Below the pieces are notes generated by a model. The model had not been told where the DNA came from and made no database searches. It saw only the letters and a program-made list of their open reading frames with translations. The translations under genes were made by a program, and so were the position numbers. Positions 3,130-28,352 of a DNA stretch of 34,055 bases are shown here, in pieces. This DNA comes from Gammaproteobacteria bacterium (GTDB taxonomy: Bacteria; Pseudomonadota; Gammaproteobacteria; Arenicellales; Spongiicolonaceae). The stretch's first letter is position 1. Each line of letters starts with the position of its first letter. Location of the stretch: assembly GCA_028817275.1 (NCBI GenBank), contig JAPPPZ010000054.1, forward strand, positions 1 to 34,055. The letters run 5' to 3'.

Positions 3130-3192
3130 GAACCACCGTTTCTGCAGTCCAAACCACCATTCCCGTCATTTTCGCACTGCAGGCCGTCATTC
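3130..3192. repeat. Degenerate 21-bp tandem repeat array (three units)
   Basis: Three consecutive 21-bp units fill part of the clpS / amt-operon gap. The period is exact in two independent words: AACCACC recurs at 3131 and 3152, and CCGTCATT recurs at 3163 and 3184, both 21 bp apart. The units resemble those at 9513-9659 and 13409-13471, sharing the core (A)ACCACC(A/G)TT. Read on the plus strand the array encodes Thr/Val/Ile/Ala-rich heptads, but there is no plausible gene here. Confidence 0.7.
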
Positions 3193-9512: not shown

Positions 9513-9659
9513 CATGCAACTTTCAGCACTGTTACCGCCGCTGACGGTGTTGTTTCTGCCAATAGCAGTACCGTTAATTCCGCCATGATAGTTGCCAACG
9601 CCGCCATTTCCGACCTTGCAGTCACCATTTCTGCACCTGCAACCACCATTTTCGCCGCC
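9513..9659. repeat. Degenerate 21-bp tandem repeat array (about seven units)
   Basis: Seven 21-bp units run head to tail. The phase is exact: CCAT recurs at 9583, 9604, 9625 and 9646, and GTT recurs at 9531, 9552 and 9573. The last three units share (C/A)CCATTT and the last two share GCA(G/A)(T/C)CACCATTT. The segment 9519-9539 matches 17 of 21 positions with the array between sucC and sucD, and the last unit matches 17 of 21 with a segment of the yejA leader (26532-26552). The right part doubles as the signal-peptide-like start of the MORN-type pseudogene. Confidence 0.78.
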
Positions 9660-9870
9660 CCGGCTTTCGCCGACCATAACCTCACCGACGAACAGGGGTG
9701 GAAGCAGGGGCATTGGACGGAATTCCCCGAGGTGGACGGACTGCCGGCGGCTGAAAGGTGAATATGTCGACGGCAAACGGCACGGCCATTGGATTAAGGA
9801 GTTTGTCAGCGGCGAGGAGCATAAATGGCACCGTGGCGGAACAGGGTTTATCGACATAGAAAAGCATTAA
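9585..9870 (+). pseudogene. Frameshifted MORN-repeat-type secreted protein
   Basis: From the ATG at 9585 the frame encodes a secretion-signal-like leader (MIVANAAISDLAVTISAP... ending AAPAFA, an Ala-x-Ala cleavage motif), then LTDEQGWKQGHWTEFPEVDG, and stops at 9761. The downstream frame, +1 relative to it, continues the same theme without a gap: GEYVDGKRHGHWIKEF, then a stop at 9870. GxYVDGKRHGHW is a typical MORN-type module and GWKQGHWTEF its degenerate partner, so one small indel around 9740-9760 has split a once continuous gene of about 95 codons. The leader is built from the 21-bp repeat. A strong terminator lies 12 bp after the final stop, supporting a genuine former gene. Sequencing error in this single spot is an alternative. 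Confidence 0.62.
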
Positions 9871-9929: not shown

Positions 9930-10745
9930 CTATTTCTCATTCCCCGGCTCCGGCCCGGGCAACTGGGCTTCGGACTTGTGCCATGCATCCAGAAACTCGT
10001 TGAAGTGCGGCAGGTTTGCGTCCTGCATTTTTTCGCGCACCAGGTCGCACTCCTCGCGCCACTTGCGCTCGGTGAAATTGCCGCGAATTAATTCCCAGCG
10101 CAGGTAAATTAAATACGTGTTGAGTGCGTCCAGTTGGCAGTAGTTGCGGATGCCCTGAATGTCGCCGGCCAGGTACTTCCCCCAAACCTTGCTGCCGTCC
10201 ATACCCGACTTGCCCGGCAGGCCCAGCAGCATGGCCGCCTCGTCCAGGGAAACAAACGCGCGCGGGTTGTAGGCGGCCAGCACATCCATCAGGTCGGTGT
10301 GGCGGAAGTGGTAGCGGTTGAAATAATTATCCCAGCGAAACTCGCGGTCGTGTTCGCCGGTGTCCCAGTAGCGCTGCGACGCGACGCCGTGCAGCAGCGC
10401 GCGGTAGTGCAGCACCGGCAAGTCAAAACCGCTGCCGTTCCATGTAACCAGCCGCGGGGTGAACTCCAGCCCCTTGAAAAATTTTGCGATGATGTCCTTC
10501 TCGCCGTCCTGCTCTTTACCCACCGCCGATACCCGCAGTTGGTCGCGGCCGCGGCGGTACACCACGGCCATGGCGATGACCTTGTGCAGGTGCACCGACA
10601 AAAAATCGCTGCCGCCGCTTTTCTCGCGCTGCTTGGCGAACATGGCCTCGCCGATGTCGCGCTCGTCGGCGTCGGTGAGTCCGTAAATGCGCCGGCCGTT
10701 CTCAAGGTCGGGAATTGTTTCAATGTCAAAAGCAAGAATGTCCAT
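9930..10745 (-). CDS. Predicted 3'-5' exonuclease related to the PolB exonuclease domain
   Basis: This 271-residue protein has the DEDD exonuclease fold: motif I FDIETIPD at the N-terminus, motif II in NGSGFDLPVLHYR, and motif III YCQLDALNTYLIYLRW. These acidic residues coordinate two metal ions that cut DNA or RNA from the 3' end. The family is a stand-alone version of the family B DNA-polymerase proofreading domain; its cellular role is not established. The ATG at 10745 has a GAGGAG site upstream. It lies 17 bp after recJ, so a 5'-3' exonuclease and a 3'-5' exonuclease appear to be co-transcribed behind sucCD. That suggests a repair link but does not prove it. Confidence 0.9.
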   Translation of the reverse strand: MDILAFDIETIPDLENGRRIYGLTDADERDIGEAMFAKQREKSGGSDFLSVHLHKVIAMAVVYRRGRDQLRVSAVGKEQDGEKDIIAKFFKGLEFTPRLVTWNGSGFDLPVLHYRALLHGVASQRYWDTGEHDREFRWDNYFNRYHFRHTDLMDVLAAYNPRAFVSLDEAAMLLGLPGKSGMDGSKVWGKYLAGDIQGIRNYCQLDALNTYLIYLRWELIRGNFTERKWREECDLVREKMQDANLPHFNEFLDAWHKSEAQLPGPEPGNEK

Positions 10746-13408: not shown

Positions 13409-13414
<6 letters not shown>

Positions 13415-13471
13415 GAAAACGGTGGTTGCGACGGTGAAAGTGGCGGCTACAGTGTTAAAAGTGACGGTTGC
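13409..13471. repeat. Degenerate 21-bp tandem repeat filling the sucC-sucD gap (three units)
   Basis: Three 21-bp units occupy exactly the space between the sucC stop and the first codons of sucD. On the plus strand the words TGAAAACGGTGG (13414), TGAAAGTGGCGG (13435) and TAAAAGTGACGG (13456) are spaced by 21 bp. On the coding (minus) strand the units read GCAACCACCGTTTTC and related sequence, the same family as at 3130 and 9639. No ribosome site for sucD is present inside the array. Confidence 0.78.
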
Positions 13472-19295: not shown

Positions 19296-19964
19296 TTACC
19301 TCTCCGCTACCGCCAGCCGCAGACCCAGCGCGACGAAGACCGATGCCGTCAGCCAGGCCAGGCAACGGTTGACCGCCGGGTTGCGCCGCAGCAGGGCGCC
19401 GATGCGGGCCGAGAGCAGGACGATGGCGGAGAAAATCAGCGCCGTCAGCAGCACAAATACGCCGCCAAGCGAGGCCATGTATACGCCCGGCGCTTCCGCC
19501 CCCGGCGGGACGAACTGGGGCAGGAAAGCAAGAAAAAACAGCGACACTTTGGGGTTCAGCACGTTCATCAGCAAGCCGCGAAAGAACAGGCTGCGGCGGC
19601 CGGCAGCATGTGCGGCCCGGCCATCACCATTGGCGCCCCCGCCACCGTCAGCCCCGCCGGCGGCATCACCGTTTCCACCCCCGGCACCGCCAAATTCCCG
19701 CACCGTCCGCCATGCGAGGAACAGCAGATACCCCACTCCCAGCACCTTGAACACGGTGAACGCCGCCGCCGAGGTCTGGAAAATCACCGCCGCACCAAGC
19801 ACCGCCGCCGTGGTGTGGGCGGTGTTGCCGAGCGTCAGGCCAAGGGCGAGGGCGAGGCCCTTGCCGCGGCCGTGGAGCATGCTCTGCGCCATCAGGAACA
19901 GATTGTCGCCGGGCATCAGAATGAGCACCGTCGCCGCCGCCGCAAAAACCGCCAACGCCTGCAT
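19296..19964 (-). CDS. RhtB/LysE-family exporter with a glycine-rich insertion
   Basis: The 222-residue membrane protein begins MQALAVFAAAATVLILMPGDN, the RhtB-type first helix (normally with MPGPD/N). It continues through GLTLGNTAHTTAAVLG, FKVLGVGYLLFLAW, RGLLMNVLNPKVSLFFLAFLPQF and a final helix pair. Such proteins export homoserine, threonine or related amino acids. Unusually, the cytoplasmic loop after the third helix (around residues 95-128) is replaced by a low-complexity stretch of Gly, Asp, Asn and Ala, making the protein longer than the usual 205-210. A start at 19994 would add ten residues. No ribosome site decides between them. Confidence 0.82.
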   Translation of the reverse strand: MQALAVFAAAATVLILMPGDNLFLMAQSMLHGRGKGLALALGLTLGNTAHTTAAVLGAAVIFQTSAAAFTVFKVLGVGYLLFLAWRTVREFGGAGGGNGDAAGGADGGGGANGDGRAAHAAGRRSLFFRGLLMNVLNPKVSLFFLAFLPQFVPPGAEAPGVYMASLGGVFVLLTALIFSAIVLLSARIGALLRRNPAVNRCLAWLTASVFVALGLRLAVAER

Positions 19965-26468: not shown

Positions 26469-28352
26469 GTGAAAACCGCCCCGGCCATTTCCATCTCCGC
26501 CGCGCTCATCGCCGTCACCGTCTTCGGTACTGCAACCACCACCTCCGGCGCCGACACCGTCACCACCGCCCACGCCATCGCCATGCACGGCAAGCCGAAA
26601 TACGCCGCCGGCTTCACCCATTTTGACTACGTCAACCCCGGCGCGCCCAAGGGCGGCGTTTTGCGGCTGGCGCGGGAGAGTTCATTTGACAGTTTTCACC
26701 CCTACATCGCCAAAGGCAGCCCGGCCACCACCGACTCCGGCGCGGCCGTCATTCCGTTCATCACCGCCAACGAAACCCTGCTCGCGCTGAGCGCCGACGA
26801 ACCGTACACCGCCTACGGTCTGATCGCCGAAAGCATCACCTGGCCGGCCGACCGCTCGTGGGTGGTTTTTGACTTGCACCCGCAGGCGCGCTGGCACGAC
26901 GGCGCCGCCATCACCGCCGCCGATGTTGTCTGGTCTTTCCGCACTCTCACCGCCGCCGGCCGGCCGTTTTACCGTTCCCTGTTCGCCGGCGTGCGCAACG
27001 TGGAAGAACTGGGCGAGCGGCGGGTGAAATTCACCTTCGCCGGCGGCGAGAGCCGCGAGATGCCGCTGCTGGTGGGGCAGATGCCGGTGCTGCCGCGCCA
27101 CTACTGGCGGCAGCGCGACTTCGCCAAAACGACTCTGGAGCCGCCCCTCGGCAGCGGGCCGTACCGGATTAAAAAATTTGAGGCCGGGCGTTATGTAATT
27201 GAGGAGCGGGTGAAAAATTACTGGGGCCGGGATTTGCCGGTGAACCGCGGCCTGCACAACTTTGACCAAAAGCGCACCGACTACTACCGCGACATCACCG
27301 CCATTCGCCTCGCGCTGAAATCCGGCCGCATTGATTTCCGCCACGAAACCACCGCCAAAGCCTGGGCTCTGGACTACGGCATTGACGCCGTCACCGAAGG
27401 CCGCCTGATTAAAGACTGGATTCCCAGCCGCAAGCCCACCGGGATGCAGGCCTTCATCTACAACGTGCGGCGGCCGGTTTTCCGCCAGCCGCTGGTGCGC
27501 GAAGCGCTGGCTTACGCGTTTGATTATGAGTGGACCAACCGCGCGCTTTTTTTCGGCCAGTACAAAAGAACCCGCAGTTATTTTTCCAACTCCGACCTGG
27601 CCTCGGACGGCCTGCCGGCGGACGCGGAACTGGCGCTGCTCAACCGCTACCGCGGCCGAATCCCGGCGCGGGTTTTTGAACAAGCCTACCGCCCGCCGGC
27701 CACCGACGGCGGCGGCTGGCCGCGGGAAAATTTACTGCACGCGGCGCGCCTGCTGAAGCAGGCCGGGTGGGTGGTGAAGGACTTCCGCCTGGTGCACGGC
27801 GAGACCGGCGAGGCCTTCACCTTTGAATTTATGATCGGCGCGTCCGGTTTTGAGCGCATCCTGCTGCCTTTTGTGCGCAACCTTAAACGGCTCGGCATTG
27901 AGGCGCGGGTGCGGGTGGTGGATTACGCGCAGTACGTCCGCCGCGCGCGCAGTTTTGATTTTGACATGATGGTGCATGCTTTCGGGCAAACCGAATCCCC
28001 GGGCAACGAGCAGCGCGCGCTGTGGGGCAGCGCCGACGCCGACCGCCCCGGCAGCCGCAACTACATCGGCATCAAAAACGAAGTGGTGGACGAGTTGGCC
28101 GAGTTGGTGGCCACGGCGACCACGCGGGAAAATTTAATCGCCCGCACCCGCGCCCTGGACCGGGTTCTGCTGTGGAATTTTTATGTCATTCCCAACTGGC
28201 ACCTGCCGGCGGTGCGAATTTTGTACTGGGACAAATTCTCCCGCCCGGCCGCGCCGGTGCGCGCCGGGGAAATGCTGAGCCGCTGGTGGTTTGACCAAAA
28301 CAAAGCCGCCGCCCTGGAGGCCGGCGCCGGCGGTGGCGGAGAGCAGCAATGA
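26469..28352 (+). CDS. yejA: Extracellular solute-binding protein of a Yej-type peptide ABC transporter
   Basis: This family 5 periplasmic binding protein of about 627 residues delivers oligopeptides to the Yej importer. The leader (VKTAPAISISAALIAVTVFG...) is followed by the YejA-type start MHGKPKYAAGFTHFDYVNPGAPKGG. Then come the SFHPYI, AITAADVVWSF, GSGPYRIKKFEAGRYVIEERVKNYWGRDLPVNRGLHNFD and FGQTESPGNEQRALWGS segments typical of YejA. The GTG at 26469 is chosen because a -10 element ends 7 nt before it; an ATG at 26448 would overlap mutY by two bases. Part of the leader (26511-26552) is made of 21-bp units like those in the intergenic arrays. The stop overlaps the next gene by 4 bp. Confidence 0.93.
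   Translation: MKTAPAISISAALIAVTVFGTATTTSGADTVTTAHAIAMHGKPKYAAGFTHFDYVNPGAPKGGVLRLARESSFDSFHPYIAKGSPATTDSGAAVIPFITANETLLALSADEPYTAYGLIAESITWPADRSWVVFDLHPQARWHDGAAITAADVVWSFRTLTAAGRPFYRSLFAGVRNVEELGERRVKFTFAGGESREMPLLVGQMPVLPRHYWRQRDFAKTTLEPPLGSGPYRIKKFEAGRYVIEERVKNYWGRDLPVNRGLHNFDQKRTDYYRDITAIRLALKSGRIDFRHETTAKAWALDYGIDAVTEGRLIKDWIPSRKPTGMQAFIYNVRRPVFRQPLVREALAYAFDYEWTNRALFFGQYKRTRSYFSNSDLASDGLPADAELALLNRYRGRIPARVFEQAYRPPATDGGGWPRENLLHAARLLKQAGWVVKDFRLVHGETGEAFTFEFMIGASGFERILLPFVRNLKRLGIEARVRVVDYAQYVRRARSFDFDMMVHAFGQTESPGNEQRALWGSADADRPGSRNYIGIKNEVVDELAELVATATTRENLIARTRALDRVLLWNFYVIPNWHLPAVRILYWDKFSRPAAPVRAGEMLSRWWFDQNKAAALEAGAGGGGEQQ

What the first reader, a model, noticed from the sequence alone, without database searches (positions are those of the whole stretch)
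9513..9659. Dispersed family of degenerate tandem repeats with an exact 21-bp period
Seven units lie here, three at 3130-3192 and three at 13409-13471. All show words recurring at exactly 21 bp, and units are related across loci: 9519-9539 matches the sucC-sucD array in 17 of 21 positions, and the AACCACC(A/G)TT core is shared by all three. The units are short, contiguous and lack spacers, so they are not CRISPR, REP or ordinary inverted-repeat elements. A 21-bp period is two turns of B-DNA, which would place a bound protein on one face. It also equals seven codons, so an array stays in frame when units are gained or lost. Both readings are inference.
Basis: partly seen in the sequence, partly recalled or inferred. 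Interest (0 to 1): 0.68.

Follow-up and report, generated by a model that had tools for sequence, protein, structure and literature searches.

The report
Genome-wide 21-bp repeat tolerated inside genes
A sponge-associated bacterium and its one sampled relative carry a 21-letter DNA repeat, in short runs at roughly 80 or more places, between genes and also inside core genes, where each unit adds exactly seven amino acids to a loop or tail of the protein; it shows how a spreading repeat can build protein linkers, though what moves it is unknown.

Summary
The three window arrays belong to a degenerate 21-bp family (C-rich strand ~CCACCATTTCCGCACCTGCAA). A two-unit pattern gives 161 hits in the 2.02-Mb genome against 2 for the reversed pattern, 131 against 0 in the only congener held, and background in the other relatives. 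Among named species genomes only one Gammaproteobacteria MAG has it.

Arrays are enriched between genes: 32 of 59 clusters lie in 6.7% of the DNA. Others lie in frame inside conserved genes: PEP carboxylase (40-aa insert), RimM, RluC, IF-2, MetG. All 11 best-placed coding cases share one codon register, read as Thr/Ala/Pro- or Gly/Asn/Asp-rich peptide. About half the length differences between orthologous arrays are 21, 42 or 63 bp. No fully empty site was found between the two species. The sucC-sucD array makes a 57-bp spacer where relatives have -17 to 12 bp.

Best reading: an old, lineage-specific, non-autonomous dispersed minisatellite, spread as multi-unit blocks, now drifting by unit gain and loss and tolerated because 21 bp is seven codons. 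It is a new variant of the dispersed-small-repeat kind. A helical-phase protein-binding role is untested.

The parts
9513..9659 (+). Array of about seven degenerate 21-bp units (C-rich strand = +); strongest units 9601-9663; intergenic, running into a broken MORN-type gene
3130..3192 (+). Two to three units in a spacer between two minus-strand genes; six units at the same place in the sister species (about +63 bp)
13409..13471 (-). About three units (C-rich strand = -) filling the 57-bp sucC-sucD spacer; the sucD ATG lies in the last unit; relatives have -17 to 12 bp here
26473..26577 (+). In-frame array forming the N-terminal signal/linker region of an SBP_bac_5 solute-binding protein (gene 26469-28352); the sister species has 63 bp = three more heptads
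19603..19686 (+). Weaker array, same length in the sister species, upstream of a periplasmic-binding-protein gene

Best explanation
This is a lineage-specific, non-autonomous dispersed minisatellite of 21-bp units. Shown: it is genome-wide in one genus, on both strands, enriched between genes, present in frame inside conserved genes, shared at orthologous places by two species, and changed by whole units. Inferred: in an ancestor, blocks of two to several units were copied to many sites by recombination or template switching; since then arrays have drifted by point mutation and by slippage or unequal crossover. They persist in spacers, operon joints, signal peptides, interdomain loops and tails because 21 bp is seven codons and, in one codon register on either strand, the unit reads as stop-free, low-complexity peptide (TTISAPA-like or GNGGxDS-like). 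Copies in the other frames were mostly purged.
For: 161 against 2 hits in own genome, 131 against 0 in the congener and background elsewhere. 32 of 59 clusters in the 6.7% intergenic DNA, p 2e-22. In-frame inserts: PEPC 40 aa against 1 in E. coli, RluC 31 against 4, RimM about 27-31 against 3; hosts identified. One codon register in 11 of 11 best-placed coding arrays; the same register is the most stop-free in intergenic arrays. 30 orthologous pairs, all with an array in both; 10 of 19 length changes are 21, 42 or 63 bp within 1 bp, p 9e-5. Two-unit blocks recur between unrelated loci, 75 pairs at 80% or more against 0 for independent columns. sucC-sucD spacer 57 bp against -17 to 12.
Against: No insertion event was caught: no fully empty site between the two species (one near-empty), and no enzyme or moving end was identified. 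Columns 1, 2 and 5 of the unit change less than background, which hints at DNA-level constraint that a neutral repeat would lack. A third coding frame has 11 weaker hits. About half the length changes are not whole units.
Confidence: 0.6

Rival explanations
1. The arrays are binding sites for a DNA-binding protein (nucleoid or regulatory) that sits on one face because the period is two helical turns, as in iteron-like arrays.
For: Exact 21-bp phase and no spacers; columns 1, 2 and 5 (CCnnC) change at 0.05 against 0.18 for the rest and 0.109 for background intergenic DNA; intergenic enrichment.
Against: Many copies lie inside proteins in one codon register, which binding does not need; overall the arrays diverge faster than other intergenic DNA; no orientation or gene-context bias; columns chosen after the fact.
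Confidence: 0.15
2. The arrays act in mRNA, altering translation of the next gene, as proposed for TAACTGA repeats in Beggiatoaceae.
For: Arrays sit at operon joints such as sucC-sucD; published analog upstream of start codons (PMC4679880).
Against: In same-strand spacers the C-rich strand is sense in 9 and antisense in 5, no clear bias; folding is not unusual in 4 of 6 strands tested; nearly half are inside coding sequence.
Confidence: 0.1
3. The repeat is selected as protein: a flexible heptad linker useful to the host proteins, with intergenic copies as by-products.
For: One register, two flexible peptide types; heptad gain in the solute-binding protein.
Against: Intergenic copies are the better matches and over half the clusters; two unrelated peptides are read from opposite strands; PEPC, RluC and RimM work elsewhere without inserts.
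Confidence: 0.08
4. Chance: codon periodicity of a GC-rich genome.
For: Low-scoring profile matches in Ala-rich genes do arise this way; the unfiltered profile drifted to codon composition.
Against: 161 against 2 with the reversed pattern; 131 against 0 in the congener; background elsewhere.
Confidence: 0.02

Closest known systems
Rickettsia palindromic elements (RPE) and other small mobile repeats (PMC2229807)
   Same: Dispersed, non-autonomous, between genes and also in frame inside conserved proteins, apparently tolerated.
   Different: RPE are 105-146 bp stem-loops with terminal inverted repeats; this is a tandem 21-bp array with no common inverted ends.
Dispersed TAACTGA heptamer arrays of marine Beggiatoaceae (PMC4679880)
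   Same: Gammaproteobacterial, about 170 short direct-repeat sets, with unit-sized indels between related strains in that class of repeats.
   Different: 7-bp near-exact unit, strong orientation toward start codons, few in ORFs; here 21 bp, degenerate, both orientations, about half coding.
MIRU of mycobacteria (own knowledge; no paper read)
   Same: Dispersed tandem arrays in spacers and operon joints, varying by unit number.
   Different: Units are several times longer and better conserved; not known to me for insertion in protein interiors.

Membership tests
Rickettsia palindromic element / MITE-like small mobile repeat | Terminal inverted repeats or long stem-loop | tested here: not met
   No shared inverted arms at the three window arrays; folding z-scores -0.8 to 1.5 in most strands, one outlier of -3.8 at 3130-3192 minus
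Rickettsia palindromic element / MITE-like small mobile repeat | Present in frame inside conserved protein genes as well as in spacers | tested here: met
Rickettsia palindromic element / MITE-like small mobile repeat | Target-site duplication or empty site showing insertion | tested here: inconclusive
   30 orthologous pairs all occupied; one near-empty site keeps about one decayed unit
Dispersed TAACTGA-type heptamer arrays | Unit of 7 bp, near exact | tested here: not met
   Unit is 21 bp; paired units average 0.47-0.54 identity
Dispersed TAACTGA-type heptamer arrays | Strong orientation toward start codons | tested here: not met
   9 sense, 5 antisense in same-strand spacers
Dispersed TAACTGA-type heptamer arrays | Orthologous sets differ by whole units | tested here: met
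   10 of 19 changes within 1 bp of 21, 42 or 63
CRISPR array | Repeats separated by unique spacers | tested here: not met
   Units are contiguous
Iteron-like protein-binding array | Bound by a specific protein | not testable with these tools
   Only an indirect hint from slow columns
Curated structured RNA family (Rfam) | Match at gathering score | tested here: not met
   0 matches in the window

The most novel reading that the evidence does not exclude
A short tandem array is itself the mobile unit: an unknown activity copies multi-unit blocks into new sites, and the array is kept both as DNA (constrained CCnnC core) and as a ready-made linker peptide in core enzymes, so that one repeat supplies spacers, signal peptides and protein loops across a genome.
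Probability: 0.15. Interest if true: 0.75.

Novelty: new variant of a known kind. Interest (0 to 1): 0.5.

Why it matters
It is a natural case of one dispersed repeat family seeding loops and tails in many core proteins. Two sister genomes show unit gain and loss in coding and non-coding copies side by side, so how small repeats spread and how protein linkers are born can be tested with more genomes of this genus. It also warns that such arrays break assemblies and mislead the calling of gene starts.

Tried and rejected
The first profile drifted into codon composition, so a null with all codon phases was used. Phage and plasmid carriage: no match in viral contigs (exact pattern) or plasmids. 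Replication-strand or transcription orientation: no clear bias. Species-specific concerted evolution: best paralog in own genome 0.735 against best non-ortholog in the other genome 0.720, no clear signal. A stable RNA hairpin as the common feature: rejected. Fully empty sites between the two species: none seen, so the mode of insertion could not be read. The apparent coding location of 19603-19686 was rejected because the ORF call had been extended upstream through the array. The RimM ortholog was not found in the sister assembly, nor was sucC.

Full report
Observation. The 21-bp periodicity is real at all three places, strongest at 9513-9659 and 13409-13471 and marginal at 3130-3192 taken alone. 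The shared words and the 17-of-21 match are as stated.

Extent. Blast of the window array against its own genome finds dozens of related arrays in register. A pattern covering two adjacent units, with up to 3 mismatches, has 161 hits against 2 for the reversed pattern. Of the related genomes searched only the single congener has it (131 against 0); in the other families of the order hits equal the control. From the isolate name I take it to come from the sponge study PMC6742649 (Stylissa, Papua New Guinea); that bin name is not in the paper's main text, so the sponge origin is inference. No viral-contig or plasmid match was found. With a codon-phase-aware profile, arrays run from 2 to 13 units. 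In a 637-kb sample of stretches, 59 pattern clusters held 119 of the 161 hits, so about 80 loci by this strict pattern, more by profile. Arrays lie at contig ends more often than expected (8 of 59, counted by hand; p 7e-4), so the count is a lower bound.

Where they lie. My own simple gene caller gives 93-94% coding. 32 of 59 clusters are intergenic and 27 in ORFs. Pfam-supported hosts include PEP carboxylase, RluC, RimM, IF-2, EF-Ts, MetG, MiaB, ribosomal protein L3, GidB, GyrA, SspB and DUF4390. Against solved homologs the array puts 40 residues where E. coli PEPC has 1, 31 where E. coli RluC has 4, and about 27-31 where RimM has 3 between its two domains. N-terminal cases (GidB, EF-Ts) may be mis-called starts.

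Reading frame. In the 11 best-placed coding arrays (RluC, RimM, IF-2, PEPC, MetG, DUF4390, hydantoinase, calcineurin-like, MiaB, L3, GyrA) the codons start at column 3 of the unit, on either strand; if registers were random, 11 agreeing has probability 2e-5. Sense copies read like TTVSAPA, antisense like GNGGLDS. In intergenic arrays these same two frames are stop-free in 21 of 24 and richest in G, N, D, S, T, P and A; the other frames carry more stops, or more His, Phe and Trp. A third frame (antisense, column 2) appears in 11 hits, mostly 3-mismatch matches in Ala-rich genes, and is unresolved. The simplest reading is that spread was blind to frame and selection kept the tolerable frames.

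Change over time. The two species are about 92% alike. In 30 array pairs with both flanks matched, the array is present in both. One further G001 array (L058:4543-4605) has only about one decayed unit at the G000 site. Of 19 length differences, 10 are 21, 42 or 63 bp within 1 bp (p 9e-5). In the window, the solute-binding protein gene at 26469 has three more heptads in G001. RluC keeps its insert in frame with many substitutions.

How they spread. Neighbouring units are only slightly more alike (0.54) than units of different arrays (0.47). Two-unit blocks recur at 80% or more between different loci in 75 pairs, none with independent columns. A 57-bp block like the sucC-sucD array occurs at another place in G001 at 86%. 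So blocks, not single units, were copied. Some arrays also share longer flanks, so part of the spread is ordinary duplication of neighbouring DNA.

Operon joint. Between sucC and sucD, relatives and E. coli have -17 to 12 bp; this genome has 57 bp, all of it array, with the sucD ATG in the last unit. The G001 contig with sucD ends at this array, and its sucC was not found.

DNA-level constraint. Intergenic arrays diverge by 0.16 against 0.109 for other intergenic DNA and 0.111 at third codon positions. Columns 1, 2 and 5 are slow (7 of 152; p 0.009 against background), the others fast. The columns were picked after seeing the data, and gene conversion or alignment error could contribute, so this is a lead only.

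Verdict. It works like a dispersed small repeat tolerated in genes, as Rickettsia palindromic elements are (PMC2229807), but lacks their inverted ends, so I do not file it there. It resembles the dispersed TAACTGA arrays (PMC4679880) but differs in unit, degeneracy, orientation and coding presence. I file it as a new variant of dispersed tandem repeats, with the mechanism of spread unknown.

Noticed in passing
window 9586-9870 (+): Remains of a small secreted MORN-type gene (…TTIFAAPAFADHN…GHWTEF, then GEYVDGKRHGHWIKE in another frame), disrupted by a frame change; the array runs straight into its signal-peptide codons. A closely similar intact reading frame is at L080 about 10153-10398 (minus).
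   Followed up: partly
L124:13-390 (G000 contig C31): A higher-order array with a 105-bp (5 x 21) period, nearly identical copies, read on one strand as an Asp/Gly-rich peptide.
   Followed up: partly
L038, L085, L084, L092 (flanks of arrays): Stretches of about 130-380 bp beside several arrays are alike at 73-75%, a second, longer repeated element of unknown kind.
   Followed up: no
L089 about 9716 versus L094:1163-1330: About 1.3 kb extra DNA next to an array in G000 compared with G001.
   Followed up: no
window 3142-3182: CTGCAGT…ACTGCAG inverted arms inside the 3130-3192 array give an unusually stable minus-strand fold (z -3.8); not seen at the other two arrays.
   Followed up: no
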